From: an uncultured Aquimarina sp.
GTDB lineage: Bacteria; Bacteroidota; Bacteroidia; Flavobacteriales; Flavobacteriaceae
Reading direction: 5' to 3'
Length of the DNA: 64,000 bases
Assembly (NCBI RefSeq): GCF_947496855.1
Contig: NZ_CANMED010000007.1
Span: forward strand, 1-64,000
Positions 19,331-34,491 of the stretch are shown here, piece by piece. Under the pieces are notes generated by a model. That model was not told where the DNA came from. It did not search any database and worked only from the letters and a program-made list of their open reading frames with translations. Within the stretch, counting starts at the first letter, position 1. Every line of letters starts with the position of its first letter. A program made the translations under genes and the position numbers.

Positions 19331-19765
19331 CTACTTCTTGAATATACATTTTATGATGACATCATTAGTCATTTTTGTAAAACTTTTATTATCAGATTTT
19401 ATATTCAAAGTAAAGCCATTTTGAGTAGAATCTTTTATTTTTAATTTATACTTTCTATCATTTTTCAATTGAGTAGAAATTTCTTTTAATTTAAAAGTCT
19501 CTAATACATTATTTTCGCTATCATACATATACATCATTAAAGGCTCTTCTTTATTTGAAAACAAGTATTGATTTGCGGAAAGCTGTAAACTTATGTTATT
19601 AGCGTTAATAGAATCTTTTCCAAGGAAATTATTAATATCCTTTTTATCACCTTTAAAATAACACTTAAACTCTTTCATATCAGAATTTTGAGTAATGTTT
19701 TTTGATTTTACACAACAGAAAGAAAGAAAAGAACCTACTATTAAGATATAAATAATATTTTTCAT
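19331..19765 (-). CDS. Small lipoprotein, candidate immunity protein for the Rhs toxin
   Basis: A 144-residue lipoprotein (hydrophobic leader, cysteines at about 17-18 in SFLSFCC). The mature part is Lys/Asn-rich with short strands (KEFKCYFKGDKKDINNFL, YLFSNKEEPLMMYMYDSENN, GFTLNIKSDNKSFTKMTND) and one or two further cysteines. I recognise no family. It starts 3 nt after the stop of the Rhs gene on the same strand, the position of an immunity gene, and as a lipoprotein it would face the periplasm, where a wall-acting toxin would be met. Its role is inferred from place alone. Confidence 0.6.
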   Translation of the reverse strand: MKNIIYILIVGSFLSFCCVKSKNITQNSDMKEFKCYFKGDKKDINNFLGKDSINANNISLQLSANQYLFSNKEEPLMMYMYDSENNVLETFKLKEISTQLKNDRKYKLKIKDSTQNGFTLNIKSDNKSFTKMTNDVIIKCIFKK

Positions 19766-19768
19766 TTA

Positions 19769-22700
19769 TTAATTTTTATTATAATAAGGATTATTTGTAC
19801 CACCTACAGGAGTAGGTGCATACGGAAGTGCATCTCCAGCTTTTTTAGCATCATCTACCTTGAAAGTAAAATGATTTTGACCTGCCTTTTGAATAATGTT
19901 TTGAACACCTGTCCCTGATTTGTTTTTAAGAACAACCACAGAAAAGTGTCTCTCATCTGCAACTACCGCTTTTGACATATTATCAACATGTTTTTGTAAT
20001 TTAGGATCATTTATTATTCCATCAATTTGAACTTTTGATTTACCTTGTGCTTTCAAGTTTTTTCTTATTTGAGAAATAAGGTACTTTTTAGTTTTAGGCT
20101 CACTATTTAACCTATAATGAATAATCGTCCCAATTTTAGAAGATGATTCTGATACAGAAGTATAATTATTCTTTAAAATTGATGCTAAATTTTCAATATT
20201 ATTATTATTAGGATTATCCCATTGACTTTTAATCGTCTTATCACTTCCACAAGCAAAATTTGCACAATTCCATCTATCTTGTTTACCAGCAACTTCATTA
20301 ATTGCTCCGTTAATTGCTTTAACTTCTTCTAAATTTCCTAATCCAAAAGAATCACCTTCATTAATCGCCGTATTTCCTAATTCAGAATGTGCACTTAAAA
20401 TATCCTTTTCACTTATTCCAAGCTGCGTGCTTAACGATTCTAAATTGTCTCCTTCTTCAGCAGTAAAACTTAATGCATAACTAGTATTTCCTTGCTTATC
20501 TGTATTCGTAACAATATTAACAATCCACAAACCATTAGGGTCTGTATAAATAAGAGGGTTATTACCACCGTAGTTGAAAGGTGAAAGGTCATAATAAAAC
20601 TCACTAACAGGATCAGGATTCATCCATCTACCTAATGTGGGATCATAATTTCTAGCACCATAATCTACCCAATCAAGACCTAATTCATTCTGTTCTTCCT
20701 TACCGTTATATCCGTATGGATGCTCAGAAACTATGGTGTTGTTGTATCCTTTATGTTGTAGTCCAAAGGGATAATAATTCTTCTCTTGTAGTATTTCCAT
20801 TGCCAGATCTCCATCTCCGTCAACATCTGCATCATTTCTAAGCACATCTATATGACCATCATTATCCTTATCGGAGTAAGACAGTCTAATGTTTCCTAAG
20901 TGATCTTTATATTGATATACATACTGATATCCTTGGCTAAGATTATTCTGGTTTATAGGTTCTATATATCCTTCGGGATGGTTAAAGAACTTTAGTACTT
21001 TTTCATCAGAATTATTAGGTCCCGGAGGTAATCCTATGGAATAATTACTTTCATAGATATAATTTCCTGCATATTCGGTAGTATTACTAGATGGATAGTT
21101 TGTGACTACTTTTCTCAATTTAGTTCCCGTGGCATCATATACATACTCAATACGTTTCTGTTGGGTCGGTATACGAGATACAAACTCAATCCTTTCGGGT
21201 AAGTTTAAGTGATTATAGGTAATACTAGAAATTTCTTTATTGTTATCTTTTATCATATTTCCATTATCATCATAAAGATAATCATTATCTGTATTATTTC
21301 CGTCAATAAAACCTTCGTTCTTATTACCACTATCAGTTACTTTGTTTAGTTTATTACCATCATCGTATACATAGGTAAGGTTGTCCATCACATTATCAGT
21401 ACCTGTCTGATCATACCTTATAAGGGTAGCTATATTACCATTTTTATCATATTCTATATCTCTTACATCATAAGATCTACGAAAAGCCTCAGTAAGAGAT
21501 TCGTTAAACCTTAAATAACTATCCTTTATCCTATTTAAAGCGTCATATTCATACGCATAGGATCTTTTAGTATTATCATTAGCAGTTTTCCATATGGTTT
21601 GCGAGATATTTCCATTATATAATGTAGATACATCATAACGTCCTTCTAATTGATTATAATTAATCTTAAAAGAAAATAAATCATTACCTATATTATCGAC
21701 ATCATTAATTTCTTTTAACCATCCTCTTACATTGTAGGTATAATCAACATCTTGTAATCCGCCACCTACTTCTTTAGAAGCTAATTGTCCTAACTCATCA
21801 TAGCTATTCGCTACGATTTGTTCTTCTGCTTGATTGTTGATCGTTTGTTTTTGATCTAACAATCTACCCATATGATCGTATGTAAACGTATCTATGGTTA
21901 CAATCGGTGTATTCACATCTTTGATATGGGTAGTTTTGGTTTCTAACACCTTGCCTGCAAAATCGAATTTACTTTCTATAATATCTATTGTATTAAGATA
22001 TTCATTGGTACTATGTACATAGATTGGCCTTGCTTTTTGATCATAATAGGTTACAGTGGTAATCCAATAACTGGTACCTAATACGCGTACTTTGGATCCA
22101 GTAGCTACTCCTTTTACATTGGTATCGATAGTTTGTTCCAAAGAAGTACCTGGATTGGTCGCATTATGATCAAAGGTGTAATTGTCGTAGTAGTTTATAG
22201 TCAGTAGATCTCCTCCACCAGGAAATGTGTTATTACTATAATATAATCTAATTCCATTTACCAGTATAGAAGTTGTATTTGTTTTGTATTCATACTCAGG
22301 TAAATTATCATTATCAAGATTGTTTTGTAAACCTGCTCTAGTAGTATCCCAAGGAAATTTCTCAATTCCTGTAAACACTGCTCTTCCAAAAGCATCGTAC
22401 TTAGTGTAGAGCCAATCTCGCTGTGGTCGCTGTACAGCATCTTGAGTAAGAATAGGTTGGTCTAATTTGTTATATATAATATATTCCCATCCTTTACCAG
22501 GGATTTTCTTTTCGACTAATCGATTACGGTAATCATATATATATTGATAACATAGTTCTGCTAGTTCTTCCGGAGACACATCGTCCGTAACATCTACTTT
22601 TGGTGGGATTACATAGGTTAGGTTCCCAAAATCATCATATACATAATAGGTATCGTGTACCACAGAGTTTGCTGAGTCTGCCGAAGCATAGGTTCTTTTT

Positions 22701-23635
22701 AGGATCACTCGTCCTAACTTGTCTTTATACTCTTTAGTTGTATGATCATCTGTATGTGTTTGATTTGGTTGCCAATTTTCATCTTTGGTAATCGTTACAT
22801 AAAGCTCGTTGGGATCATAGAATCCGTCTTTTACCAAGATAGGGAGTTCTGTATTATTTTCATGAAAGTTCACCTTAAAATACACCACCTCATCCGCTTC
22901 ATTAGTAGTCCAATCAAATTTAATGGTATGATCGGTGTCTACAGCATCATTAGCTTTCCAGGCTTTTCCTGGTGCTCCTTGTTCCAAAACACGGTTTAAA
23001 GGTGATGGTTCAAAAATACTTTCGGAATAGGCATTGACATCGGCTTCTGCCATTACTATGAAGTCATCCTCGTACTTAGTTTGATAATAGTTATTTATGT
23101 CATCCGTAATATTTACAGCATTATAACTTCCCAACGCACCGCTTTGTCTCTCAAAAGGCAGGTATTGTTTCGCTTGTCTCCCATACTCATCATAGCCGAT
23201 ATGGGTGACGATGTCTTTCTTGTCAGGAGAGGCTTTGATCCCTATTTGTTGTTTAGCACGACCTAACCCATCAAAATAGGTAATACCCTCGATGACGTCG
23301 CTATTGTTTTTGATTCCAGTTGATGGATTTAACAATTGTGATTCTGTGATCGGCACCTGAAAGGTTCTTGTAAACACATAATTTTCATCTGTATCTAAGA
23401 TACTGGGAATATATGCATCAGCAGAAATTGTAGCAGTAAAAACCGTTCCGGGTTGTATCCAGGTAGTGGGTTTAATAGTGATCGCTTGACCCGCCTTTAC
23501 ATTCAGTAATGCCGGATCACTGGATGCATTGATAGTTTCATCTTCTATGGTAACTGTATCTGCTACCTGGGCAGTTGTAGTCATTCCTACTAGAACTAGT
23601 AGGATTCTTATACTATGTTTTATACTATTTTTCAT
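19769..23635 (-). CDS. DUF6443 Rhs/YD-repeat protein with C-terminal LysM-like and Cys-His domain (candidate toxin)
   Basis: A 1288-residue exported protein (signal ending TTTAQ, about residue 23). DUF6443 (TYFDGLGRAKQQIGIK, GYDEYGRQAKQYLPF) covers the N-part. YD repeats follow (YDYDDFGNLTYV-type, YVYDDGNKLNKVTD, YDYDNGNMIKDNN-like). The Rhs core (QYVYQYKDHLGNIRLSYSD, YDYGARNYDPTLGRWMNPDP, FNYGGNNPLIYTDPNG) ends at residue 1035. The tail of 253 residues is distinct. Residues about 1057-1102 (EEGDNLESLSTQLGISEKDI, INEGDSFGLGN) look LysM-like. After that, W-N-Cys1124-A-N-F-A and later R-His1230-F-S-V-V-V with a following Gly/Asn-rich strand resemble a papain-like CHAP/NlpC peptidase or amidase. 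The peptidase call is inferred from the motif pair. Confidence 0.75.
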   Translation of the reverse strand: MKNSIKHSIRILLVLVGMTTTAQVADTVTIEDETINASSDPALLNVKAGQAITIKPTTWIQPGTVFTATISADAYIPSILDTDENYVFTRTFQVPITESQLLNPSTGIKNNSDVIEGITYFDGLGRAKQQIGIKASPDKKDIVTHIGYDEYGRQAKQYLPFERQSGALGSYNAVNITDDINNYYQTKYEDDFIVMAEADVNAYSESIFEPSPLNRVLEQGAPGKAWKANDAVDTDHTIKFDWTTNEADEVVYFKVNFHENNTELPILVKDGFYDPNELYVTITKDENWQPNQTHTDDHTTKEYKDKLGRVILKRTYASADSANSVVHDTYYVYDDFGNLTYVIPPKVDVTDDVSPEELAELCYQYIYDYRNRLVEKKIPGKGWEYIIYNKLDQPILTQDAVQRPQRDWLYTKYDAFGRAVFTGIEKFPWDTTRAGLQNNLDNDNLPEYEYKTNTTSILVNGIRLYYSNNTFPGGGDLLTINYYDNYTFDHNATNPGTSLEQTIDTNVKGVATGSKVRVLGTSYWITTVTYYDQKARPIYVHSTNEYLNTIDIIESKFDFAGKVLETKTTHIKDVNTPIVTIDTFTYDHMGRLLDQKQTINNQAEEQIVANSYDELGQLASKEVGGGLQDVDYTYNVRGWLKEINDVDNIGNDLFSFKINYNQLEGRYDVSTLYNGNISQTIWKTANDNTKRSYAYEYDALNRIKDSYLRFNESLTEAFRRSYDVRDIEYDKNGNIATLIRYDQTGTDNVMDNLTYVYDDGNKLNKVTDSGNKNEGFIDGNNTDNDYLYDDNGNMIKDNNKEISSITYNHLNLPERIEFVSRIPTQQKRIEYVYDATGTKLRKVVTNYPSSNTTEYAGNYIYESNYSIGLPPGPNNSDEKVLKFFNHPEGYIEPINQNNLSQGYQYVYQYKDHLGNIRLSYSDKDNDGHIDVLRNDADVDGDGDLAMEILQEKNYYPFGLQHKGYNNTIVSEHPYGYNGKEEQNELGLDWVDYGARNYDPTLGRWMNPDPVSEFYYDLSPFNYGGNNPLIYTDPNGLWIVNIVTNTDKQGNTSYALSFTAEEGDNLESLSTQLGISEKDILSAHSELGNTAINEGDSFGLGNLEEVKAINGAINEVAGKQDRWNCANFACGSDKTIKSQWDNPNNNNIENLASILKNNYTSVSESSSKIGTIIHYRLNSEPKTKKYLISQIRKNLKAQGKSKVQIDGIINDPKLQKHVDNMSKAVVADERHFSVVVLKNKSGTGVQNIIQKAGQNHFTFKVDDAKKAGDALPYAPTPVGGTNNPYYNKN

Positions 23636-23642
23636 CCTTTAC

Positions 23643-26600
23643 TTAGTTTTTGTAGTTATACTGGTTTTCTGATAGAATATTACCATCCTGATCTTTTACG
23701 AATTTTAAACGGTTGAACTCGTCATAGTGATAGATCATTGTATACCCTCGAGGATCGGTCATACTGGTAACACCAATTAGTGGGTCATAGGTGTATGATG
23801 TAATCATAGGAGTTTGAACAAAATACCCATCTTCTCTTAATGTATTAAACATATCGCGTAAATCATCTTCTTCTGTATCCGTATCTTCATTATCAGATGC
23901 AGACTTTATTTGATTGATCAGGTTTCTGGTAACTGTTAACATATTAGCATAAGAAGCATTCTCGATCTTTGCTATTGGATATTGGTCATTATATCCCCAG
24001 ATATATATTATATGTGTGTTATCAGCTTTTGAAACTTCTAAGGGATTACCATAATCATCATAGCTATAGTATTGGATTCGATCTTCTAATCCATCTTCAT
24101 TTTTAGAAGATTTTATATATTCTGTACTTATAATATCATTGCTCCAGTTACGATAAGTGGTTTGTTGTTTAGATAACTGAAAATCACTTTTAGTAACCGT
24201 TATCTCCAATGGTGCAGCCAATCTGTTTTTAATTATCAAATCATTATTTATAGCGCTATTTAATGTATAAGGATATTCATAACTAGTTATATAGGATTCA
24301 TTCCTACTATCGATTACTTCTTTTTCTTTTATATGCCCTTGAGGGTTCATATAGTCATAGTTTTTAATACTGATAAGGTTAGAATTGTTTAAAAATTCTG
24401 TGTTCTTTTCGGTAGTTAACCATTCACGATCTATATTATTTCCAAAGACGGTACTGTTACTGGTATATCCATTAGAACCAGAAGTATTATTGGCAGCAAT
24501 AATACCAATACTAAGAGCATAGACACGTTGATTTATTCCAGTAAGAGAGGTTCCATTACCATCAAAGTCATAGGTGTATTCTTTTGAAGAAATAGGATTT
24601 GAAGACGAATTATTATAAACTTCTTCTGTTAATGGTTTTCCATTTTTAAATTCTTTGTTATCCACATCCAAAAAAGGAAACGTTAAGCTTTGCTCTACAG
24701 GACTGCATACGAATGTTTTTTTAGTATATCCTAAATAGTTGTTGCTATTCCCTTTAATTCTTTCAACGACCGTATCATAAAAAATATGTGAGCCCATAAA
24801 ATATCCTAGTGGCACATTACTACTGCTAGAATACACATCATAAACAGCACTGCAAATGCCATTTCCTATCGCACCATTTACTGAAGACATTCTATATTCC
24901 GTAATGTTACGTTTTCTAAATAACTTACCATAACTCTTGCCATTTGTATCTTCATAAATGAATTCCTTTTCTGTACATTCTGAACTGTTATTATTTGGAC
25001 AGTTCTTAATTTTAGAAATTCTAATTCCGGCAGTTTCTGTTATTACGGCAGATGTTACTTCCTTAGATACGGAAGCAGATGCAATTATAATATCTCCAGT
25101 TGTATAGGCAACGCCAAAATTTTCTACTTCTACTTTAAGTTCATATGTTCCTGGTCTTAATTTATATCGTCTGTTTAATGTTTTTTGTCCTGGCGAAAAG
25201 TGTGTTGGACCACCAATAGAACGATATACTGTATCGCATCCGCTACCGTCACCAGGAGGACCGCTATAACATTCAATATCAGCACAACCTACATTAGAAC
25301 CATTAATCTTACTTAACGAAGCCCTCGCTATTCCTGGTATAGAATTCCCCAATATGCCACCATCATCGGCAATCTTTCTTACATTCAAGTTAACTGAAAT
25401 ATGCTGAAGGCCTTCCTCTACGGTAAAAGTCAATTTGTCCGTCTTATAATTGGTACCTTGATTTTGTTCTTGCCAATTTAAACTAACATTTTTTGATCCA
25501 ACAAATTGTAATTCAGCATTTTGACAGGTATACGGAATAGGGTTAGAAATAGCATCTACCGAATTAAGCTGATATTCAATTTCTGAAGAGCCTTTTGTAG
25601 GGTAGGTGATTTTTTTAAGAGCTCCCATTCTTGTTTTCTCAAAGTCTGGTTTTCTGCCTCCAAATACATCATAGGTATTATAAGAGTTAATTAAAAAATT
25701 ATTAGGGTTTGAGTTATAATAGCCCCAAAAGTCCTGCTCATAAAAAGGTATGACATCGGGAGGAGATGTATAATAATCAAAACTGTAAAAATTCTTATTG
25801 TCGTTATTAATTCTAACCTCAGTTAAAAGTTTTCTGGTTTTATCAAGGTTATCAAAATATAAATCATATGTATTTATAACTTTGTTGTTTTGGTTAAGGA
25901 CACGTATTCTATCAAGATGTGATAAATACTTATTTTTATTACTATTATTATCTGAAAGGGTTATAATTGTATTATCAAATTCTATTTTTCCTTTCGGAAA
26001 CACAATGTTCTTTATGATTTTAGAAGTTATTTGATAATTACGTGTTGAAGTTGTTAATGGGCTACTCGAACAATTTGAGTCTCCAGAAACCCATTGTCTA
26101 AAACTTTGTGATTTTGTACTTTGATAATGTACAGTAACATCGTAATTAAATGTTAGCTCTTCATTATTAATCAATATTACTTTGGATAATTTCCAACCAG
26201 ATGTATAGCCATTATGCATTGAGCCCGCAATTTCATTTAAAGAAATAGGTTGCGTACGAGTGGTGGTTTCTTTTTCCTGGAAAAAATATTGAATACCATT
26301 GTCATCGGTAATTTTTATACCTTGATTAAATGAAAAATCATTATTTATAAGTTCAATTTTATATGGTTTATAGGGCTTTATTACAGGTTTTCTATTTTCA
26401 TCAAAATAGAAGGTAACACTCATGTTTCCAACATTTGCAATAAATCTATCAGGTTGTAAATCAATAAGGTTTTCTGATGCTAGCTGATTAACATAACTTT
26501 TTCTTTGCGGAGTTAATTGATTATTAATGTAAGGGATTACTATGTTTTCTCCTGTCATTTGACTCCCTATATATCCAGCAGGATCTTCATCTGGACGTCC

Positions 26601-26927
26601 TTTCATTTGTCTAGTGATCATTCCCCCAGCACTTAAATTCCATCCTATTCCTAAATGCCCAGGTATTTGATCTACAACTAAACCATTATGCTGATAATTC
26701 ACAGAAACGGGTAGTTGAAAGCCAACTTCTTCAATAGTATATATGGGAACAGAAAAGCTAGCCATTCCTACTGATAAATTAACTGGTATTTCACCGAATC
26801 GACCTAAATTAGACGCTTCGGGAGAAGCAGGAAAAATTTTGGGAATATCGTTTGGATCTTGGGAAAATAATAGACTACTAATTAGTAGTAGTGCTAATGT
26901 AATTAATAGGCTAGATGATTTTTTCAT
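23643..26927 (-). CDS. Large Rhs/YD-repeat surface protein
   Basis: A 1094-residue exported protein (signal ending LLFSQ). The start domain (SPEASNLGRFGEIPVNLSVG, FQLPVSVNYQHNGLVVDQIP, HLGIGWNLSAGGMITRQMKG) is typical of Bacteroidota Rhs proteins related to SpvB-type shells. The middle part is beta-rich with several Cys-containing stretches (NVGCADIECYSGPPGDGSGC). YD repeats occupy the C-terminal quarter (YYSYDDYGNPLEVSK, YHYDEFNRLKFVKDQDGN). It has no toxin-like tail of its own. It lies 7 nt upstream of the DUF6443 Rhs gene; such pairs are common in Bacteroidota, and the second protein carries the variable end. Whether both are exported by T9SS or otherwise is unclear: there is no T9SS tail. 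Confidence 0.8.
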   Translation of the reverse strand: MKKSSSLLITLALLLISSLLFSQDPNDIPKIFPASPEASNLGRFGEIPVNLSVGMASFSVPIYTIEEVGFQLPVSVNYQHNGLVVDQIPGHLGIGWNLSAGGMITRQMKGRPDEDPAGYIGSQMTGENIVIPYINNQLTPQRKSYVNQLASENLIDLQPDRFIANVGNMSVTFYFDENRKPVIKPYKPYKIELINNDFSFNQGIKITDDNGIQYFFQEKETTTRTQPISLNEIAGSMHNGYTSGWKLSKVILINNEELTFNYDVTVHYQSTKSQSFRQWVSGDSNCSSSPLTTSTRNYQITSKIIKNIVFPKGKIEFDNTIITLSDNNSNKNKYLSHLDRIRVLNQNNKVINTYDLYFDNLDKTRKLLTEVRINNDNKNFYSFDYYTSPPDVIPFYEQDFWGYYNSNPNNFLINSYNTYDVFGGRKPDFEKTRMGALKKITYPTKGSSEIEYQLNSVDAISNPIPYTCQNAELQFVGSKNVSLNWQEQNQGTNYKTDKLTFTVEEGLQHISVNLNVRKIADDGGILGNSIPGIARASLSKINGSNVGCADIECYSGPPGDGSGCDTVYRSIGGPTHFSPGQKTLNRRYKLRPGTYELKVEVENFGVAYTTGDIIIASASVSKEVTSAVITETAGIRISKIKNCPNNNSSECTEKEFIYEDTNGKSYGKLFRKRNITEYRMSSVNGAIGNGICSAVYDVYSSSSNVPLGYFMGSHIFYDTVVERIKGNSNNYLGYTKKTFVCSPVEQSLTFPFLDVDNKEFKNGKPLTEEVYNNSSSNPISSKEYTYDFDGNGTSLTGINQRVYALSIGIIAANNTSGSNGYTSNSTVFGNNIDREWLTTEKNTEFLNNSNLISIKNYDYMNPQGHIKEKEVIDSRNESYITSYEYPYTLNSAINNDLIIKNRLAAPLEITVTKSDFQLSKQQTTYRNWSNDIISTEYIKSSKNEDGLEDRIQYYSYDDYGNPLEVSKADNTHIIYIWGYNDQYPIAKIENASYANMLTVTRNLINQIKSASDNEDTDTEEDDLRDMFNTLREDGYFVQTPMITSYTYDPLIGVTSMTDPRGYTMIYHYDEFNRLKFVKDQDGNILSENQYNYKN

Positions 26928-27000
26928 TGATATAACAGTTTAGTTAAGAAATAATATTGAATGGAAATACTTAGCACTTTTTTAAAAGATAAGAAATAAG

Positions 27001-28209
27001 TTACCTTTCTAAAGTTGTCAACAGAGCTTCTAATTTTGATAATCTATCTTCTAAATTGATATTTTTTATTTTTAAATTTTCAATGACTTCTTTAGATGAT
27101 TTGGTTTCACTTTTAAAATGTTTTAATTCTTTCTCCTGAGCAATTGCGTAAAGCGTCAGTTCCTCAATTTTCTCTAAAAGTTTCGCATTCATTGCTCCTA
27201 ATTGGATACCATTCTCAGCTACTTCTGTGGCTGATGGGATGTTGATTAAATGACCTTTGGTAGCAATATGATCTTCTACCTGTTGCAGGGTAGGTAGCTT
27301 ATAATCTTCTTTAAACACATAATCTGCCCAGCCGATTAGGTCTACTTTTACTTCTTTGGTATGGATATTACCGTTTACGGCTAATTTGGCATCTGGAGTT
27401 GTGGTGCCGATACCAATATTACCGTTAAACATATTTGCAAACATAAAAGAGGTTTCTAAAAGTTCACTATTAGTATATTCTAATTTGGTTCCAGGTTTTT
27501 CTCTAAGAAAATAGGTACCTTCATCTTGGTAAATAATCCCACCTATATCATTATAGGTCCCCTCTGGACGCACCCATTTTTTCAGGGTTTGATTCCACTT
27601 TGCAGGACCACGATGTCCTGTAAGCCAATCATCTCTTAACCACCCATTATCTGCAGTAGAAACAGTCAATCCAATTGTAGTTTTTCTAAATTGAACTCCC
27701 CCAGAAACGTGTAATTTAGCTCCAGCAGTTGGCGTCGATACACCAATCCCAACATTACCTGCAGTATTTACTATAAATCGACTTCCATTAGATCCGACTT
27801 GAAAAATACCATCTGTTCTCATAACTCCTGTATTATGATAGAAATTTTTATCTCCATAGGTCCTAATCCATGAACTATCCGACATATAAAATCCACCACC
27901 AAAGCCAAAACGTAGGCTTTTAGCTATTTGAAAATCTCCTAAAGTATTCAATGCTGCCACGGGAGTAACACCAGCAACTCCCCAAGTCCAACCTCTACCA
28001 GCATTATTACTCATATTCATTTTAATACTATAATCAGTTACGGGACCATATTTGTTCTCGGCCGCGTTACCCATATGGATTTTGTAAGTATCACTATTCC
28101 AGAAACGCAATCCGTTGCCGTTACCGGCAGTTACATTATATTGGGTTTGCTGTGCAAAGCCTATACCTGTCACAAAACCGACTAAGAGTATGATTAATAA
28201 ATTTTTCAT
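27001..28209 (-). CDS. Tail-fibre-like secreted protein, copy A
   Basis: A 402-residue exported protein (signal ending GFAQ). It has fibre modules (GNVGIGVSTPTAGAKLHVSG, GNIGIGTTTPDAKLAVNG) and the common Bacteroidota C-terminal module (KEVKVDLIGWADYVFKEDY, VEDHIATKGHLINIPSATEV, IQLGAMNAKLLEKIEELTLY), then a coiled coil. It is one of three tandem paralogues. Its C-terminal module agrees with copy B in part and differs in part, so it is a mosaic. It is 73 bp upstream of the first Rhs gene in the same direction. The N-terminal half, unique to this copy, probably determines specificity or anchoring. No T9SS tail is seen. Confidence 0.75.
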   Translation of the reverse strand: MKNLLIILLVGFVTGIGFAQQTQYNVTAGNGNGLRFWNSDTYKIHMGNAAENKYGPVTDYSIKMNMSNNAGRGWTWGVAGVTPVAALNTLGDFQIAKSLRFGFGGGFYMSDSSWIRTYGDKNFYHNTGVMRTDGIFQVGSNGSRFIVNTAGNVGIGVSTPTAGAKLHVSGGVQFRKTTIGLTVSTADNGWLRDDWLTGHRGPAKWNQTLKKWVRPEGTYNDIGGIIYQDEGTYFLREKPGTKLEYTNSELLETSFMFANMFNGNIGIGTTTPDAKLAVNGNIHTKEVKVDLIGWADYVFKEDYKLPTLQQVEDHIATKGHLINIPSATEVAENGIQLGAMNAKLLEKIEELTLYAIAQEKELKHFKSETKSSKEVIENLKIKNINLEDRLSKLEALLTTLER

Positions 28210-28214
28210 ATTGT

Positions 28215-29237
28215 TTATTTATTGTTTATTAGTTGATTTAATTTTTCTTCTAGTTTATTAATTCTTAAACTTTGTGATTTTAGAGCTGTTATCTGATCTT
28301 CTTGTTTAATCAGTTTTTTCTCCTGCTCCTTCAGCTTCTTCTCCTGCGCAATCGTATACAAAGTCAGTTCTTCGATTTTCTCCAAAAGTTTGGCATTCAT
28401 TTTACCTAATTGGATGCCATTTTCTGCTACTTCTGTTGCAGATGGGATGTTGATCAAGTGTCCATTTTTAATAATATGATCTTCTACCTGTTGCAGGGTA
28501 GGTAGCTTATAATCTTCTTTAAACACATAATCTGCCCAACCGATTAAGTCTACTTTTACTTCTTTGGTGTGGATGTTTCCGTTTACGGCTAGTTTGGCGT
28601 CTGGGGTAGTTGTGCCGATTCCAATATTTCCAAGTTTATTTATAACCATGTCACTTTCTTGATGATTATTTACTCGGAACTCCATCTTATCGGTATTATG
28701 ATAATATTGCATTCCTCCAACAAAATCATCATCAGTATCAGAGAAACCATAATAGCCTATCTTAGTATTAGGTGACAATAAGTTCATCATTGTGTGATCA
28801 TCATCTTCTAAAGTTAATTCAGAATATCCATGCACCGTTCCACCTGAGCTACCATTTACAATATGAAGTTTTGAATTTGGATTTATTGTTCCAATACCTA
28901 CATTACCATTTGCACCTACTTGAAATAAGGTGGCTCCACTTTGTACTGTAGCCCCATATCCTTTTCTTTTAACCTGAAAAGCATTTTTTTCCGTATTTCC
29001 ATACATCCATACAACTGGAGAAATTTGACTAGAGCCCGTGACAATACCAAATCCACCTTGCGCCTGATTGGTATCATCCGTTCCTTCCTGAGCTCCTGCA
29101 AATTGCATCAATGTGCCAGTACCATTTCCAATGGTCATTACTCCATTATTCTGTGCATCAGTATCTAAACTTTGCGCAATAATACTCGATGTAAACAAAA
29201 AGCTTACTATAGAAATTCTAATTATCTTTTCAATCAT
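28215..29237 (-). CDS. Tail-fibre-like secreted protein, copy B
   Basis: A 340-residue exported protein with a signal ending SIIAQ. The N-terminal half (NGVMTIGNGTGTLMQFAGAQ, GYSELTLEDDDHTMMNLLSP) is unlike its neighbours. The C-terminal half is the shared module (GNIGIGTTTPDAKLAVNG, WADYVFKEDYKLPTLQQVED, IKNGHLINIPSATEVAENG) and then a Lys/Gln-rich coiled coil. About 273 bp of the module match copy C with three mismatches. It starts 2 nt after the copy C stop and its own stop lies 5 nt before copy A, so the three are surely co-transcribed. Confidence 0.75.
   Translation of the reverse strand: MIEKIIRISIVSFLFTSSIIAQSLDTDAQNNGVMTIGNGTGTLMQFAGAQEGTDDTNQAQGGFGIVTGSSQISPVVWMYGNTEKNAFQVKRKGYGATVQSGATLFQVGANGNVGIGTINPNSKLHIVNGSSGGTVHGYSELTLEDDDHTMMNLLSPNTKIGYYGFSDTDDDFVGGMQYYHNTDKMEFRVNNHQESDMVINKLGNIGIGTTTPDAKLAVNGNIHTKEVKVDLIGWADYVFKEDYKLPTLQQVEDHIIKNGHLINIPSATEVAENGIQLGKMNAKLLEKIEELTLYTIAQEKKLKEQEKKLIKQEDQITALKSQSLRINKLEEKLNQLINNK
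28333..28605 (-). repeat. Duplicated C-terminal module, copy B
   Basis: This stretch aligns without gaps to 29337-29609. By eye I count three mismatches in 273 bp, clustered where CTGTTGCA in this copy meets TTGTTCTA in the other (read on the plus strand). This suggests recent duplication or gene conversion. Confidence 0.75.
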
Positions 29238-29239
29238 AA

Positions 29240-30265
29240 TTACTTCGTTTTTAAAAGGGTATTTAATTTTTGTTCCAAGTCATTGATCTTGGTATTTTGT
29301 TTTTTGAGGACTTCTATTTCTTTTTGTTGAGTGTTTAGCTTCTTCTCCTGCGCAATCGTATACAAAGTCAGTTCTTCGATTTTCTCCAAAAGTTTGGCAT
29401 TCATTTTACCTAATTGGATGCCATTTTCTGCTACTTCTGTTGCAGATGGGATGTTGATCAAGTGTCCATTTTTAATAATATGATCTTCTACTTGTTCTAG
29501 GGTAGGTAGCTTATAATCTTCTTTAAACACATAATCTGCCCAACCGATTAAGTCTACTTTTACTTCTTTGGTGTGGATGTTTCCGTTTACGGCTAGTTTG
29601 GCGTCTGGGTTGGTGGTGCCGATGCCCAAATCACCTTCGATATACTGATTTCCAATACTATGAACTACTCTTGCCCAAGTTCCGCTACCTTCTTTATTGG
29701 TACTTCTGAAATACATTTTTGGGTGCACAGAATTATTCTTTACCACAATTTGACCGTTATATTTATAATCAGGATTATTCGAACTATGATTCATGTTAAT
29801 TCCCCAAAACCATTGATTTGGTTCAGGAACATTAGTGGCATTATAACTTTGGTAGAAACCGCTTCGCCATAGCGTATTCCAATCTGATGTATCATTAGGA
29901 TCTGCCAATAGTAACTTATCGCTTTTAATGGTTCCTTTAACATCTAATTTTGCACCTGGAGAAGTAGTTCCAATACCAACATTACCTCCTGATGTCGGGA
30001 ACATTATTATATTACCGGTTCCTGTTCTTAAAGTAAGATCCCTATTATTATATGTAAATATTGAAAAATCATTCCCATCACCATAATCGACACTTGTATT
30101 ATTCCACATAAAACCTGCCTTATAATCTGATGGAGTTCCAAATCTTAAAAAACTATAAGGGTTTCCACTTCCTAGTTTTGGATTTATATATCCTAAATCT
30201 GCTGTTTGCCCAAAAACACTAATACTTAACACTAACACACACAGAAATAACAATGACTTTCTCAT
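29240..30265 (-). CDS. Tail-fibre-like secreted protein, copy C
   Basis: A 341-residue exported protein with a signal ending VFGQ. Its N-terminal half (YINPKLGSGNPYSFLRFGTP, GNDFSIFTYNNRDLTLRTG, GNVGIGTTSPGAKLDVKG) is distinct, with a 'NHSSNNPDYKYNGQIVVKNN'-type pyocin-knob-like stretch that could be a trimerised fibre domain. The C-terminal module is nearly identical in DNA to copy B. It is the first gene of the leftward train that runs through the Rhs genes to the lipoprotein, so the promoter should lie in the 720-bp spacer to its right; no clear TAnnTTTG is visible there for this strand. Confidence 0.75.
   Translation of the reverse strand: MRKSLLFLCVLVLSISVFGQTADLGYINPKLGSGNPYSFLRFGTPSDYKAGFMWNNTSVDYGDGNDFSIFTYNNRDLTLRTGTGNIIMFPTSGGNVGIGTTSPGAKLDVKGTIKSDKLLLADPNDTSDWNTLWRSGFYQSYNATNVPEPNQWFWGINMNHSSNNPDYKYNGQIVVKNNSVHPKMYFRSTNKEGSGTWARVVHSIGNQYIEGDLGIGTTNPDAKLAVNGNIHTKEVKVDLIGWADYVFKEDYKLPTLEQVEDHIIKNGHLINIPSATEVAENGIQLGKMNAKLLEKIEELTLYTIAQEKKLNTQQKEIEVLKKQNTKINDLEQKLNTLLKTK
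29337..29609 (-). repeat. Duplicated C-terminal module, copy C
   Basis: Partner of the near-identical block at 28333-28605, offset by exactly 1004 bp with no indels. Confidence 0.75.
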
Positions 30266-30766
30266 ACTTATAAAAAATTGATATAATTAAAAATTGTAGT
30301 AAAACGCTTCTAAATTTCCAATTAGATGCTGTTTTATAATAGATAGTGTCATGAGGTCTACTTATGTTACTATCAAAATTCAATTTTTTTTAAAAAATTT
30401 GAAAGTTTACGTTTTAGCTGTGTATTATCACCCTTCGGCTACGTTACCATTGACATATTTTATAAATAGCTGTATTTTCAATATTTAAAACTCCTTCCCT
30501 TGAAGGAATGTTGGGATAGGTGTTTGCTTAAAAACATCCTCCTCGATCCTCCTTCTTAGGAGGAAGTAGAAGCTACAGATACAACAAATGTTAGTTTAAT
30601 CACTGGATAAAATTTTTATTGGATGTCTCAGTATGACAGCTCACCCTTCGACTACGCTCAGGGTTCGGATAGGTTCAGGGTTCGAGAATTGAGGGCTGAG
30701 GCACTCGAAGCCCGGTTCATATCAGGGTTCGAGAACCTCACCCTTCGCAGATTATACGTTAGATAT

Positions 30767-30854
30767 GCGTCAGGGATAGTAAAGGAAATCCCGCAGCCCG
30801 ATCCGCTGTGGCGGAGAGGTGCGAGGAATTGTATTGGATAGCCCGCCAGGACGC
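30767..30854 (+). repeat. Structured dispersed repeat, copy 2 (possible Flavo-1-like RNA)
   Basis: Closing stem GCGTC (30767-30771)/GACGC (30850-30854), hairpin GGGAT/ATCCC and hairpin CCGC/GCGG in the same order as at 2980-3055. The closing stem differs in sequence from copy 1 but still pairs. Confidence 0.5.
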
Positions 30855-30933
30855 CCTAATTCATAGAAAATTAATTTTTGTCGTGTGTTAGGATATTCTT
30901 ACATGCGATTGCACTAACTATACTAAAAATCAA

Positions 30934-30964
30934 TTGAAAGATTATAGCATACTTCGTATCTTTG
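30934..30964 (+). promoter_or_regulatory. lysS promoter
   Basis: TTG (30934-30936), 20-nt spacer, TATCTTTG (30957-30964), leaving about a 15-nt leader before the ATG at 30986. Good match to the Bacteroidota consensus. Confidence 0.65.
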
Positions 30965-30985
30965 CACGCTTAAAACGGCAGCATT

Positions 30986-32677
30986 ATGCAATTATCAGAA
31001 CAAGAACTTGTAAGAAGAGAGAAACTAAAATCTTTACGTGACTTAGGTATTAATCCATATCCAGCGGCTTTATTTCCGGTAGATCATACTTCTGAGGATG
31101 TCAAACAGCAATACGAAGAAGGAAAAAAGGTAATCATAGCCGGGAGATTGATGTCCAGACGTATACAAGGGAAAGCTTCTTTTGCAGAGTTGCAAGATTC
31201 TAATGGCCGTATACAGGTATATTTTAATAGAGATGAAATCTGTACTGGTGATGAAAAGACCAAGTACAATGAGATTTATAAAAAACTATTAGACATAGGA
31301 GACTTTATTGGTGTCGAAGGAGAACTTTTTACCACTCAAGTTGGTGAAAAAACAGTAATGGTAAAAGATTTTACTTTATTAAGTAAAACACTAAAACCTT
31401 TACCTCAACCCAGAACTGATGTTGATGGTAATGTACATGATGCTTTTACGGATCCAGAATTGAGATACCGTCAGCGTTATGTAGATCTAATAGTAAATCC
31501 ACAGGTTAAAGATGTATTTATAAAAAGAACAAAGCTTTTTAACGCGATGCGTGAGTTTTTTAATACCAAAGGGTATTTTGAAGTAGAAACACCAATTCTA
31601 CAACCAATTCCTGGTGGTGCCTCTGCGCGTCCTTTTATAACACATCATAATTCCTTAGATATTCCGTTATATATGCGTATCGCTAACGAGCTATATCTAA
31701 AGCGATTAATTGTAGGTGGTTTTGAAGGAGTGTATGAGTTTTCTAAAAACTTCAGAAATGAAGGGATGGATAGAACTCACAATCCTGAGTTTACCGCTAT
31801 GGAAATCTATGTAGCTTATAAAGACTACAACTGGATGATGGAGTTTACAGAAAATCTGGTAGAACATTGTGCGATTGCGGTAAATAAAACTACAGATGCT
31901 ACTTTTGGAGAACATAAAATAAACTTCAAAACCCCATATGCTCGTGTAACCATGACTGATTCTATCAAACATTTTACAGGATTTGATATTACTGGTAAAT
32001 CTGAAGACGAAATTCGAGAAGCTGCAAAAGGAATGGGTATCGATGTGGATGAAACCATGGGTAAAGGAAAATTGATCGATGAGATTTTTGGAGAAAAATG
32101 TGAAGGAAACTATATACAACCCACCTTTATTACGGATTATCCAAAAGAGATGAGCCCTTTATGTAAAGAACATAGGGATAACCCAGAACTTACAGAACGT
32201 TTTGAGCTAATGGTTTGTGGTAAAGAGATTGCCAATGCATATTCTGAGCTTAATGATCCAATTGATCAGCGAGAACGTTTTGAAGTGCAGTTAAAATTAA
32301 GTGAAAAAGGAGATGATGAGGCTATGTTTATCGATGATGACTTTATCAGAGCCTTAGAGTATGGTATGCCACCAACTTCTGGAATGGGAATTGGCATGGA
32401 TCGATTGATTATGTATCTAACCAATAATCAATCGATACAAGAAGTATTATTCTTCCCACAAATGAGACCCGAAAAAAAGGCAGTAGAATTGAATGATAAT
32501 GAGAAAGCAATTTTTGAGGTTATCAAAAAAGAACAAAGCATGGCTTTAGCAGACCTTAAAACAGCTTCTGGTTTAAGTAATAAAGCTTGGGATAAAGGAA
32601 TGAAAGGTCTTTCTAAACTTGGACTTACTAAAGTTACCAAAACAGATGATAGTCTGATTGTAGAGGTGACTGAGTAA
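30986..32677 (+). CDS. lysS: Lysine-tRNA ligase, class II
   Basis: A 563-residue class II lysyl-tRNA synthetase that charges tRNA-Lys with lysine. The N-terminal OB anticodon-binding domain spans about 50-150 (IIAGRLMSRRIQGKASFAEL). The catalytic core shows motif 2 (FRNEGMDRTHNPEFTAMEIY) and motif 3 (GMGIGMDRLIMYLTN), with the conserved PQMRPEKK after it. A C-terminal extension of about 60 residues (AIFEVIKKEQSMALADLK...VEVTE) lengthens it beyond the 500-residue bacterial form; such extensions are common in flavobacterial LysRS. It is a single gene between its own promoter and a strong terminator. Confidence 0.98.
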   Translation: MQLSEQELVRREKLKSLRDLGINPYPAALFPVDHTSEDVKQQYEEGKKVIIAGRLMSRRIQGKASFAELQDSNGRIQVYFNRDEICTGDEKTKYNEIYKKLLDIGDFIGVEGELFTTQVGEKTVMVKDFTLLSKTLKPLPQPRTDVDGNVHDAFTDPELRYRQRYVDLIVNPQVKDVFIKRTKLFNAMREFFNTKGYFEVETPILQPIPGGASARPFITHHNSLDIPLYMRIANELYLKRLIVGGFEGVYEFSKNFRNEGMDRTHNPEFTAMEIYVAYKDYNWMMEFTENLVEHCAIAVNKTTDATFGEHKINFKTPYARVTMTDSIKHFTGFDITGKSEDEIREAAKGMGIDVDETMGKGKLIDEIFGEKCEGNYIQPTFITDYPKEMSPLCKEHRDNPELTERFELMVCGKEIANAYSELNDPIDQRERFEVQLKLSEKGDDEAMFIDDDFIRALEYGMPPTSGMGIGMDRLIMYLTNNQSIQEVLFFPQMRPEKKAVELNDNEKAIFEVIKKEQSMALADLKTASGLSNKAWDKGMKGLSKLGLTKVTKTDDSLIVEVTE

Positions 32678-32702
32678 ACTTTTTTAGTGAAGTCAGAAAT
32701 TA

Positions 32703-32733
32703 AAAAACGCAACCTTTTTCAGGTTGCGTTTTT
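32703..32733. terminator. Terminator of lysS
   Basis: AAAAACGCAACCT (32703-32715), 5-nt loop, AGGTTGCGTTTTT (32721-32733). It also works in the other direction, for the convergent phosphatase gene. Confidence 0.9.
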
Positions 32734-32760
32734 ACTGCTTACTTATAAACAAAAACATTT

Positions 32761-34491
32761 TTAGCTATACGTAACTGTTTTCCCAGTAGTCACGATATAA
32801 TTTTCTGCAGCAATGGTATTAATAAAATTCCATTGTGCTTCACTGCTATTTGGTGTAAAGGTAACTTGTAAAAACCCTCTTTGTGTAGCATCCATATATT
32901 GTAAGTCATCTATTAATAGTTTCAAGGCTTCCTGAAAACCAGTTGCTTGATTTGCATCAACTCCTAAAAATCCTTCAAAACCAGGAGACGAGACCGAAGA
33001 TGTAGCGAACTCCACTCCTATTTCTTTACCATTCGCATCTTTTAACTCGCTATACCAAGCATTATGTGTATCACCAGCCAAACAAACTGTTTTCTTTCCT
33101 CCCAACATTGCAAAAAGCTGTTCTCTCTCCATAAGATAACCATCCCAAGCATCTAAGTTATAAGGAATAACTGTTTGTACCCTTGCAATCTCCTCTGGTG
33201 TAAGTGTTGAATCCCCAGATAAAAGTCTGGACTTGATCGTTGTCAGTTCTGTTAACACTGTTTGAAAAGCAGCAGCTGTATCTGGAGTTGCGCTTCCTAA
33301 CGCTCCTATTTCTGCCACAAGCCTTCCTATTAAAATTAAAAGCTCTGCAGGCATAAACATCTTACCCATTAATACTTGCTGGCCTAATACTTGCCAATTA
33401 GCACTACTTGCCGAAACTGCTCCAGACAACCAACTTAGCTGTTCTGATCCTAGTAAAGCTCTACTAGGATCCTGAAGTGCTGTCTGAAAAGCAACAGCAT
33501 CCAATCCTGTAGTTGGACTAAAGAAATCATCATAAGAAAGCTGTTTATCTCTACCAATAATTCGTGTATCCAGCATATGTAAACTTAGTACACTCCCAAA
33601 ATTAAATGATCGGTAGATCTTTGATGGATCTGTCGATCGCAATGGTAAAAATTCGCTATATACTTGTATTGCCGTTTGTTTTCTGGTTTCATAAGAACCT
33701 TCAGAATCTTGATGGTTCTCTGCGCCATCTTTATACGCATCATTGGTAACTTCGTGGTCATCCCACACACAGATAAATGGTTTTTTCTGATGTGCTAATT
33801 GTAGTTGAGCATCACTTCTATATTGCTTATACCTCTCTCGATAATCTGTAAGCGATATAATTTCATTTGCAGGTGTATGAACTCTATCCAAGGCTACAGT
33901 ATTCTCATTAGTTCCATACTCTCCTTCTCCATACTCATAGATATAATCTCCTAAATGAACTATTACATCCGCCTCAGAATTAGCCATTGCTCCATACACA
34001 TTAAATAAACCAGCTGCAAAATTTGCACAAGAACAAACGGCCAACTTTACATCAGCTACCGTGTCACCCATTGCAGGAAGTGTAATCGTCTCGCCAATTA
34101 CAGAAGTAGTTTGAGTTTCTAATTCAAAAAATCGATAATAAAACTTACTATTAGAAGGTAATTCTTGAACATCAATTGCAACCGTATAATCTCTATCAAC
34201 TCCTGTTACAAACTCACCGCTTCGTACTACATGGTCAAAATTTTGATCTGAAGCAATTTGCCAATTAATTGTAATATTCGAGTTACCAGAATCAGGAGTA
34301 AATCGTGTCCATATAATAACTTTAGAATCCGTAGGATCAAAACTTGCTAGCCCTTCAAAGAAATTATCAGTATTAAGATCTGGAATGCTTACATCCATAT
34401 CGTCATCGTTATTACAACTGATATACATCGGAGCAATCATAAAGCCTCCTGCAACTAACAAGGATTTTTCAAAAAAATTTCTTCTGTTCAT
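32761..34491 (-). CDS. PhoD-type alkaline phosphatase (metallophosphatase)
   Basis: A 576-residue exported phosphatase of the alkaline phosphatase D family. The N-terminus has the twin-arginine motif RRNFFEKSLLVAGG and then YISC, a possible lipobox (Cys26) followed by NNDDD, so a Tat-exported lipoprotein is likely. A Fn3-like lead domain (about 45-150) is followed by the metal-binding core: VHLGDYIYEYGEG, WDDHEVTND, and near the end LAGDTHNAW. PhoD enzymes use Ca2+/Fe3+ and act on phosphate mono- and diesters, including teichoic acids, in the periplasm or outside. It has no pho-like neighbour. Confidence 0.9.
   Translation of the reverse strand: MNRRNFFEKSLLVAGGFMIAPMYISCNNDDDMDVSIPDLNTDNFFEGLASFDPTDSKVIIWTRFTPDSGNSNITINWQIASDQNFDHVVRSGEFVTGVDRDYTVAIDVQELPSNSKFYYRFFELETQTTSVIGETITLPAMGDTVADVKLAVCSCANFAAGLFNVYGAMANSEADVIVHLGDYIYEYGEGEYGTNENTVALDRVHTPANEIISLTDYRERYKQYRSDAQLQLAHQKKPFICVWDDHEVTNDAYKDGAENHQDSEGSYETRKQTAIQVYSEFLPLRSTDPSKIYRSFNFGSVLSLHMLDTRIIGRDKQLSYDDFFSPTTGLDAVAFQTALQDPSRALLGSEQLSWLSGAVSASSANWQVLGQQVLMGKMFMPAELLILIGRLVAEIGALGSATPDTAAAFQTVLTELTTIKSRLLSGDSTLTPEEIARVQTVIPYNLDAWDGYLMEREQLFAMLGGKKTVCLAGDTHNAWYSELKDANGKEIGVEFATSSVSSPGFEGFLGVDANQATGFQEALKLLIDDLQYMDATQRGFLQVTFTPNSSEAQWNFINTIAAENYIVTTGKTVTYS

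What the first reader, a model, noticed from the sequence alone, without database searches (positions are those of the whole stretch)
27001..30265. Three tandem fibre genes with near-identical C-terminal modules
The C-terminal module of copies B and C agrees over 273 bp with about three mismatches and no indel, at a 1004-bp offset, while their N-terminal halves are unrelated. Copy A shares some stretches (such as the CTGTTGCAGGG variant) with B and differs elsewhere, like a mosaic. This looks like domain shuffling with gene conversion, with the N-terminal half as the variable part.
Basis: seen in the sequence. Interest (0 to 1): 0.6.

Follow-up and report, generated by a model that had tools for sequence, protein, structure and literature searches.

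The report
Shuffled fibre genes beside RHS toxin
Three neighbouring genes of a marine bacterium (probably Aquimarina) encode secreted fibre-like proteins that share one near-constant end but carry interchangeable front pieces, and relatives show those pieces, and a toxin-like gene behind them, being swapped at the shared sequences, so the bacterium can probably re-assort what its surface fibres bind.

Summary
Genes A, B and C share a ~102-codon C-terminal module. In its 273-bp core B and C differ at 3 positions (fourfold sites 1/32; A/B 12/32). Heads, bodies and coiled-coil tails are not alignable between copies at DNA level.

The N-terminal parts are chains of beads, each opened by a GxVGIGT motif, and the same beads recur in other orders in relatives: one G017 gene is A's head plus C's body; B is a G028 gene minus one bead. 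Most joins lie in the motif or the module, though not all. Exchange also runs past the fibres: from A's module through most of RHS1 the window is 95% identical to a locus that relatives carry beside leuB. This genome's leu site holds no fibre or RHS gene, and its copy of the relatives' lysS-type RHS pair lies elsewhere, without a fibre.

Inferred function: Sec-exported trimeric adhesin fibres, whose constant module helps the trimer fold and doubles as a homology anchor for recombination. Nearest known: Bdellovibrio MAT fibres, with reversed polarity. No Pfam or NCBIfam family covers the module; the S74 catalytic pair is mostly absent. New variant of a known kind.

The parts
29987..30265 (-). 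fibre C, leader and head (aa 1-93)
   Evidence: leader followed by Gln; relative of the head of G022_C8_9365, 66% over 110 aa
29636..29986 (-). fibre C, body bead opened by GNVGIGTTSP
   Evidence: motif positions; with the module, 29340-29989 is 86.5% nt to G017:C4 gene 2 over 650 bp
29333..29635 (-). fibre C, constant module
29240..29332 (-). fibre C, coiled-coil tail and stop
   Evidence: long helix in the models
28908..29237 (-). fibre B, leader and head (aa 1-110)
   Evidence: aa 1-131 is 84% aa and 89% nt to G028_C8_8890
28632..28907 (-). fibre B, body bead; one bead fewer than the G028 relative
28326..28631 (-). fibre B, constant module; core 28333-28605 differs from C at 3 of 273 positions
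28215..28325 (-). fibre B, coiled-coil tail and stop
27760..28209 (-). fibre A, leader and head (aa 1-150); aa 1-100 matches G017_C4_9556
   Evidence: 72% aa; the match ends near aa 97-100, not at a GIGT motif
27424..27759 (-). fibre A, body bead opened by GNVGIGVSTP
   Evidence: aa 138-262 is 80% aa to G025_C1c_8566
27118..27423 (-). fibre A, constant module with a B-identical 66-bp patch (27265-27330)
   Evidence: groups with leu-site modules, 89/95
27001..27117 (-). fibre A, coiled-coil tail and stop, shared with leu-site fibres
   Evidence: 96.5% nt to G006_C1b, 93.9% to G017_C11
23952..27423 (-). stretch 95.1% identical to the G006 leu-site locus (A module, A tail, most of RHS1)
   Evidence: fine profile
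23643..26927 (-). RHS1, YD/RHS-repeat protein with leader
   Evidence: PF05593 25.4 bits over the cut-off of 22
19769..23635 (-). RHS2, DUF6443 and RHS core with a variable C-terminal tip (about aa 1036-1288)
   Evidence: TIGR03696 60.3 bits over the cut-off of 32.5; tip unalignable to relatives
19331..19765 (-). 144-aa ORF 3 bp behind RHS2; candidate immunity protein, possible lipoprotein leader by eye
   Evidence: no family over its cut-off

Best explanation
A, B and C are Sec-exported fibre proteins: leader, a chain of beta-rich beads each opened by a GxVGIGTTxP capping motif, one constant C-terminal module, and a coiled-coil tail. SHOWN by sequence: heads, beads, modules and tails have separate histories; most joins between differently related stretches lie in the bead motif or in the module; the B and C modules became near-identical recently; the stretch from A's module through most of RHS1 is of a type that relatives carry at another chromosomal site. 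INFERRED: ordinary homologous recombination (gene conversion, unequal crossover, uptake of DNA from other Aquimarina) uses the motif and the module as anchors, so in-frame fibres with new binding parts, and new fibre-RHS pairings, arise without a dedicated recombinase. INFERRED: the module is a trimerisation cap that plays the part of the S74 chaperone, mostly without self-cleavage; the beads and head bind surfaces; RHS2 with its variable tip is a polymorphic-toxin-like partner.
For: B/C core 3 of 273 mismatches against 12/32 and 13/32 fourfold differences to A; B and C sister at 100/99. Chimeras: G017_C4_9556 = A head (72% aa) + C body (91% aa); B = G028_C8_8890 minus one bead. Internal ends of 114 N-terminal segments fall in the motif in 58% and 61% of cases against 22% and 23% for random positions, maximum of 1000 null sets 34%. 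Linked end-of-gene plus next-head stretches shared with G017:C4 and G028:C8. Cassette: 95.1% over 3474 columns to G006's leu-site locus against 84.6% for the lysS flank; RHS1 fourfold 0.12-0.13 against 0.31-0.44 for flanking genes of the same genomes; leu site here without fibre or RHS; lysS-type RHS1 elsewhere in this genome at 93% aa. Export: leader plus Gln in 74 of 76 fibres against 129 of 442 other ORFs, by a home-made rule. Fibre nature: similarity to solved Bdellovibrio fibre Bd2133, E 6.7e-7; module+tail model pLDDT 89.7 with a 63-residue helix.
Against: Alignments extend into a conserved motif, which inflates motif-end counts. Not all joins are at the motif: the match of A's head to G017, G022 and G015 ends near aa 97-100, some 50 residues before A's motif. 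Homogenisation is not universal: orthologous arrays G001:C10 and G002:C1 keep distinct modules (62-67% within, 87-94% between), and 31 of 63 fibres in multi-fibre regions have their nearest module in the same region. A's module is only 87% identical to the G006 leu-site module and dips to 77% in the middle, so the exact 5' crossover is unclear; the grouping of A with leu-site modules (89/95) is below the starred level. High identity ends near residue 900 of RHS1. RHS is not a constant partner: 18 of 41 stretches. Trimer, surface location and binding are untested; the full-length model of C is poor (pLDDT 67.4, pTM 0.34).
Confidence: 0.65

Rival explanations
1. B and C arose by a recent tandem duplication and then diverged quickly outside the module under selection; no conversion or shuffling took part.
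For: Tandem arrays with varying copy number at the lysS site: 3 here, 3 in G028, 2 in G017, 1 in G006.
Against: Heads of B and C have different relatives in other species at 66-84% aa, and similarity stops within a few bases at the motif and the module end; fast divergence from one ancestor would not produce this.
Confidence: 0.07
2. The genes are phage tail fibres of a prophage or a phage-tail-like particle.
For: Tail-fibre PHROGs match all three proteins, best E 1.7e-6, 2.1e-8 and 9.3e-9.
Against: The matches centre on the bead motif; the module has no match in 50,697 phage records and no confirmed one in viral contigs; leaders indicate Sec export; none of 17 scanned window proteins (of 53 ORFs of 120 aa or more) is a phage structural or integrase family.
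Confidence: 0.04
3. A shufflon-like or retroelement-driven system with its own enzyme makes the variation.
For: Weak Shufflon_N hit in A, 20.6 bits under the cut-off of 27.5; constant and variable parts.
Against: The constant part is C-terminal; copies are direct; no inverted repeat of 25 nt or more in 24000-34000; no recombinase or reverse transcriptase among 17 scanned window proteins of 53 ORFs. The rest of the genome was not searched for such enzymes.
Confidence: 0.04
4. The fibres are structural, gliding or matrix proteins, and RHS genes are bystanders at shared insertion hot spots.
For: 23 of 41 stretches show no RHS match (some are cut by contig ends); other arrays sit beside OmpH-like and ~1850-aa unknown proteins or proteases with a T9SS sorting tail.
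Against: In the window the spacing C-B-A-RHS1-RHS2-144 aa is 2, 5, 73, 7 and 3 bp, and A's tail goes with RHS1.
Confidence: 0.2

Closest known systems
Mosaic adhesive trimer (MAT) fibres of Bdellovibrio (PMC10769870; abstract and sections 10, 12 and 16 seen)
   Same: Sec-leader fibres, beta-helix segments with the same capping-loop motif, exchanged parts, several genes per genome
   Different: MAT has a conserved ~130-aa N-terminal domain and a variable C-terminal tip; here the N-terminus varies and the C-terminal module is constant. MAT proteins are typically about 1,000 aa, these are 340-402 aa
Peptidase S74 / intramolecular chaperone (PF13884)
   Same: C-terminal, directly behind the capping motif; D34 aligns with the Asp of SDxxxK; weak fold match to MyRF ICA
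   Different: No PF13884 match; Ser and Lys occur together in 9 of 82 members
Rhs C-terminal tip displacement (PMC2935791; abstract seen)
   Same: Homologous recombination joins constant cores to variable parts; lateral transfer
   Different: Here a fibre module upstream of the RHS gene lies at the border of the exchanged stretch
Polymorphic toxins of Bacteroidetes (PMC3482391 and PMC7073777; passages seen)
   Same: Leader, RHS repeats, variable C-terminal tip, small gene behind
   Different: Tip and small protein match no family over its cut-off; the passages seen describe no fibre array like this

Membership tests
MAT superfamily | Capping-loop beta-helix segments | tested here: met
   By sequence: phmmer of B to Bd2133 E 6.7e-7 over 126 residues; Foldseek aligns only the capping loop, 22-28 columns, no E under 0.5
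MAT superfamily | Conserved ~130-aa N-terminal domain after the leader | tested here: not met
   N-terminal parts of A, B and C are unlike each other
MAT superfamily | Trimer on the cell surface | not testable with these tools
   Only single-chain models were possible
Peptidase S74 (PF13884) | Match to the family model | tested here: not met
   No hit in A, B, C, in 82 modules at E 0.01 or in this genome
Peptidase S74 (PF13884) | SDxxxK catalytic motif | tested here: not met
   Ser 27, Lys 28, both 9 of 82; Asp 82 of 82; A, B and C have Ala there
Peptidase S74 (PF13884) | Chaperone fold | tested here: inconclusive
   MyRF ICA Z 2.8, rmsd 3.6, 90 residues, the only one of 35 chains with Z 2 or more; Foldseek E 1.7; hhalign to 24 S74 domains prob 94% but only 38 columns, mostly the capping motif
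RHS polymorphic toxin (RHS2) | RHS repeat-associated core | tested here: met
   TIGR03696 60.3 bits, cut-off 32.5
RHS polymorphic toxin (RHS2) | Variable C-terminal tip | tested here: met
   Alignments to relatives stop near residue 1035-1055; last windows 19-24% aa
RHS polymorphic toxin (RHS2) | Toxic tip with immunity protein | not testable with these tools
   No family over its cut-off for the tip or the 144-aa protein
Phage tail fibre | Part of a phage or prophage | tested here: not met
   17 of 53 window ORFs scanned
Shufflon | Inverted repeats and recombinase at the locus | tested here: not met
   (no inverted repeats of 25 nt or more in 24000-34000); no recombinase in 17 of 53 window ORFs
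eCIS tail fibre | Located in an eCIS cluster | not tested
   No eCIS search was run; the leaders speak against it

The most novel reading that the evidence does not exclude
A two-level recombination platform: one constant, mostly non-catalytic chaperone-like module is both the folding cap of a secreted trimeric fibre and the homology anchor through which bacteria swap target-recognition beads on one side and RHS toxin cassettes on the other, between fixed chromosomal slots (lysS, leu), giving Bacteroidota a recombinase-free, evolvable targeting-plus-toxin repertoire.
Probability: 0.35. Interest if true: 0.7.

Novelty: new variant of a known kind. Interest (0 to 1): 0.5.

Why it matters
The module occurs in 36 of 56 searched genomes, this one included, with up to 10 fibre genes in a 16-kb locus, yet no Pfam or NCBIfam model covers it. 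The arrangement suggests how a bacterium could re-assort surface-binding specificities with ordinary recombination, ties fibre evolution to polymorphic-toxin evolution at shared sites, and gives a motif by which bead libraries can be cut and compared. It makes a claim testable: that fibre and RHS specificities are inherited as exchangeable pairs.

Tried and rejected
Rejected: Shufflon_N, AFOR_N and DUF3450 hits in the fibres (all below cut-off); tail-fibre PHROGs as proof of phage origin (they centre on the bead motif); promoter and terminator scan (22 found, 16.1 expected; 3 found, 2.7 expected), uninformative.

Led nowhere: nucleotide-level junction count over all fibre HSPs is dominated by module-only matches and says only that similarity usually starts and stops at the module. 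NCBIfam on four ~1850-2055-aa neighbours of other arrays and Pfam on one: no family. RHS2 tip in Pfam and PDB: nothing over cut-off. PADLOC on four window proteins: nothing. The first S74 extraction read the wrong strand for most loci (hhalign prob 7-15%) and was redone (24 of 30 loci usable). Full-length model of C is low confidence and was not searched. Viral structure library: 0 of 292 hits at E 0.001, though several top rows are named Peptidase S74. VIA second look: apart from MyRF ICA no chain reached Z 2.

Four-gene test, G016:C5 against G012:C18: N-termini pair between species (84% and 82% aa) while modules are more alike within G016 (81% nt) than between orthologues (73% and 72%). Within G012 they are not (70%), and the tree puts a third species' module inside the G016 pair, so it is not used as proof.

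Dropped before counts: one module domain under 100 bits (the G000:C3 copy with an in-frame stop) was left out, 77 of 78 kept; 79 of the 80 named loci went into alignment A2 with the three window modules (L130 left out); one fibre cut by its region's end was left out of the leader count (76 of 77). The 41 stretches were chosen from the best hits, not at random; one search's own match list was itself cut.

Papers: PMC10769870 abstract and three sections; PMC3482391, PMC8213781, PMC12923769 and PMC7073777 passages; PMC5837995 and PMC2935791 abstract and outline. Other papers were seen in search listings alone.
Full report
WHAT IS THERE. On the minus strand lie three ORFs in the order C (29240-30265), B (28215-29237), A (27001-28209), then RHS1 (23643-26927), RHS2 (19769-23635) and a 144-aa ORF (19331-19765). 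Gaps are 2, 5, 73, 7 and 3 bp, so one operon is likely. A, B, C, RHS1 and RHS2 each begin with a hydrophobic leader followed by a small residue and Gln, as do 74 of 76 related fibres against 129 of 442 other ORFs, by a home-made rule; this fits the Bacteroidetes Q-rule (PMC5837995, abstract). Upstream lie a lysyl-tRNA-synthetase-like gene (called lysS here; Pfam class II D/K/N), a PhoD-like phosphatase and PorP/SprF.

THE OBSERVATION. Confirmed to the base. B and C differ at 3 of 273 core positions at offset 1004, and 8 of their 13 differences in 303 sit in the first 26 nt. N-terminal parts of B and C, and of A and B, give no BLAST hit; the tails are also unrelated.

THE FRONT PARTS ARE BEADS. 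I collected 77 module-bearing genes from 40 of 41 stretches of this genome and relatives of its genus; the stretches were chosen from the best hits and are not a random sample. Motifs G-x-[LIVFM]-G-[IVL]-G are spaced 62-178 residues, 107 of 113 spacings at most 120. Beads recur in new orders. G017_C4_9556 is A's head (72% aa, residues 1-100) joined to C's body (91% aa, 85% nt). B equals G028_C8_8890 with one motif-to-motif bead missing. G022_C8_9365 joins a relative of C's head (66%) to a relative of B's body (60%). Relatives of beads of A, B and C occur together in one Croceivirga locus, L086. Of 114 N-terminal segments at 50% identity or more, internal ends fall in the motif in 58% and 61% of cases against 22% and 23% for random positions. 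In the window array several DNA matches start within 0-4 bp of a motif start: 27423, 28907, 29986-29990. Others do not: three matches of A's head end at 27918-27923, before any motif. Alignments also stretch into a conserved motif, so the counts show that switches lie in or near it, not the exact base.

LINKED STRETCHES. Window 27918-28562 (part of B's module, B's tail, A's head) matches one continuous stretch of G017:C4 at 78.7%, and 28850-29571 (part of C's module, C's tail, B's head) one of G028:C8 at 87%. Part of the module, the tail and the next head thus travel together, as expected if crossovers occur within modules of neighbouring genes. Copy number at this site is 3 here, 3 in G028, 2 in G017 and 1 in G006.

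THE CASSETTE. From 27423, the motif of A's module, to 23952 the window is 95.1% identical over 3474 columns to L070, a G006 locus downstream of leuB; the lysS-side flank is 84.6% identical to G006's own lysS site over 8185 columns (gene identities). RHS1 fourfold divergence is 0.12 (G006) and 0.13 (G017) against 0.37-0.44 for genes beside the window array and 0.31-0.41 for leu-region genes compared with the same genomes; the last ~150-200 residues of RHS1 are more diverged. G006 and G017 also differ less in RHS1 (0.13) than in lysS or leuB (0.25, 0.24), so this gene seems to move among species. A's tail is 96.5% nt identical to G006's leu-site tail, its module 87%, its N-terminal part unrelated; A's module groups with the leu-site modules at 89/95, short of the starred level. 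Inside A's module the identity to L070 dips to 77% in the middle, where the B-like patch ends. This genome's leu site shows no fibre and no RHS in 20 kb (L172), while G006, G017, G028, G025 and G009 have both there. The lysS-site RHS1 of G006 and G017 has a 93% aa homologue here on contig C8, with no fibre gene in that 20-kb stretch. Near-identical RHS1 DNA (96-97% over about 3 kb) was found in 2 of the 51 other Aquimarina-genus genomes searched. RHS2 is less alike, 58-92% aa by window over most of its length, and its last ~240 residues are unalignable. The simplest history is capture of a leu-type RHS cassette into the lysS-site fibre array by recombination in or near the fibre module; direction, donor and exact 5' crossover are inferred.

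NOT ALWAYS HOMOGENISED. The orthologous three-gene arrays of G001:C10 and G002:C1 keep distinct modules, 62-67% within and 87-94% between. In all, 31 of 63 fibres in multi-fibre regions have their nearest module in the same region; B/C is the most similar of 51 same-region pairs (95.7%, next 92.3%).

THE MODULE. In 82 sequences 18 positions are invariant, D34 among them. No Pfam family matches more than 1 of the 82 and no NCBIfam family more than 4 at E 0.01. AF2 on module plus tail has pLDDT 89.7 and pTM 0.65: two short strands of the capping motif, two short helices, then a 63-residue helix. Structural resemblance is limited to the capping loop of Bdellovibrio fibres and, weakly, the MyRF ICA domain (Z 2.8, 90 residues); that MyRF ICA is an S74-type chaperone is recalled. 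D34 aligns with the Asp of the S74 SDxxxK motif in a short profile alignment that is mostly capping motif (38 columns, prob 94%). Ser and Lys occur together in 9 of 82. I propose, as inference, an S74-like cap without self-cleavage in most members; membership is not claimed. This genome has no PF13884 match, while 27 of 91 searched genomes do.

SPREAD. 36 of 56 searched genomes, own included, carry the module; the own genome has 8 copies. Of 80 named loci 77 gave a fibre ORF and 40 hold two or more, up to 10. Plasmids: 8 records of 72,556, one Persicobacter plasmid with 18 places. Phages: none in 50,697 records, none confirmed in viral contigs. RHS matches accompany fibres in 18 of 41 stretches, two of them weak (L046 at 41 bits, L062 cut by the contig end at 60 bits), and a crude RHS pattern in 13 of 80 named loci.

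COMPARISON. MAT fibres of Bdellovibrio (PMC10769870) share the capping motif and exchange of parts, but there the N-terminus is constant and the tip varies; here the polarity is reversed. Rhs tip displacement (PMC2935791, abstract) is the closest recombination precedent. Paper searches listed no paper that I recognised as describing such a fibre array in Bacteroidota; the library lacks most subscription papers, so this is weak evidence.

VERDICT. Observation confirmed; interpretation right in kind and extended to beads, linked stretches and an RHS cassette. The evolutionary mechanism is well supported, the biochemical function inferred. New variant of a known kind.

Noticed in passing
window 30206-30443: The first ~20 codons of C plus ~175 bp upstream are 83-88% identical to the starts of first fibre genes at both lysS and leu sites of relatives: a conserved leader or promoter region shared across sites.
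   Followed up: no
L171 (CP012864.1 10256-50558): A Persicobacter plasmid of 110 kb holds 18 places matching the module; 12 fibre ORFs in the 40 kb fetched.
   Followed up: partly
G000:C3:1861 (L007, L060) and G010:C198:38460: Module copies interrupted by an in-frame TAA, probably decayed fibres.
   Followed up: no
L041 776-7634, L038, L050, L051, L066, L073: Fibre arrays in line with ~177-aa (OmpH-like in L041), ~200-aa and ~1830-1910-aa genes; the four large proteins (1845-2055 aa) scanned match no NCBIfam family and the one scanned no Pfam family.
   Followed up: partly
L047 11374-12777, L048 6375-8558, L077 12492-14777: Fibre arrays directly followed by proteases (S8 or M43) with a T9SS sorting tail.
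   Followed up: no
plasmid hits H5 (Haliovirga abyssi) and H8 (Leisingera sp. M527): Module relatives at 46-47% identity in genera that, recalled and not checked, lie outside Bacteroidota.
   Followed up: no
G000:C8, L173 2498-10054: A second RHS pair of the lysS-site type of relatives, with no fibre gene in the 20-kb stretch.
   Followed up: partly
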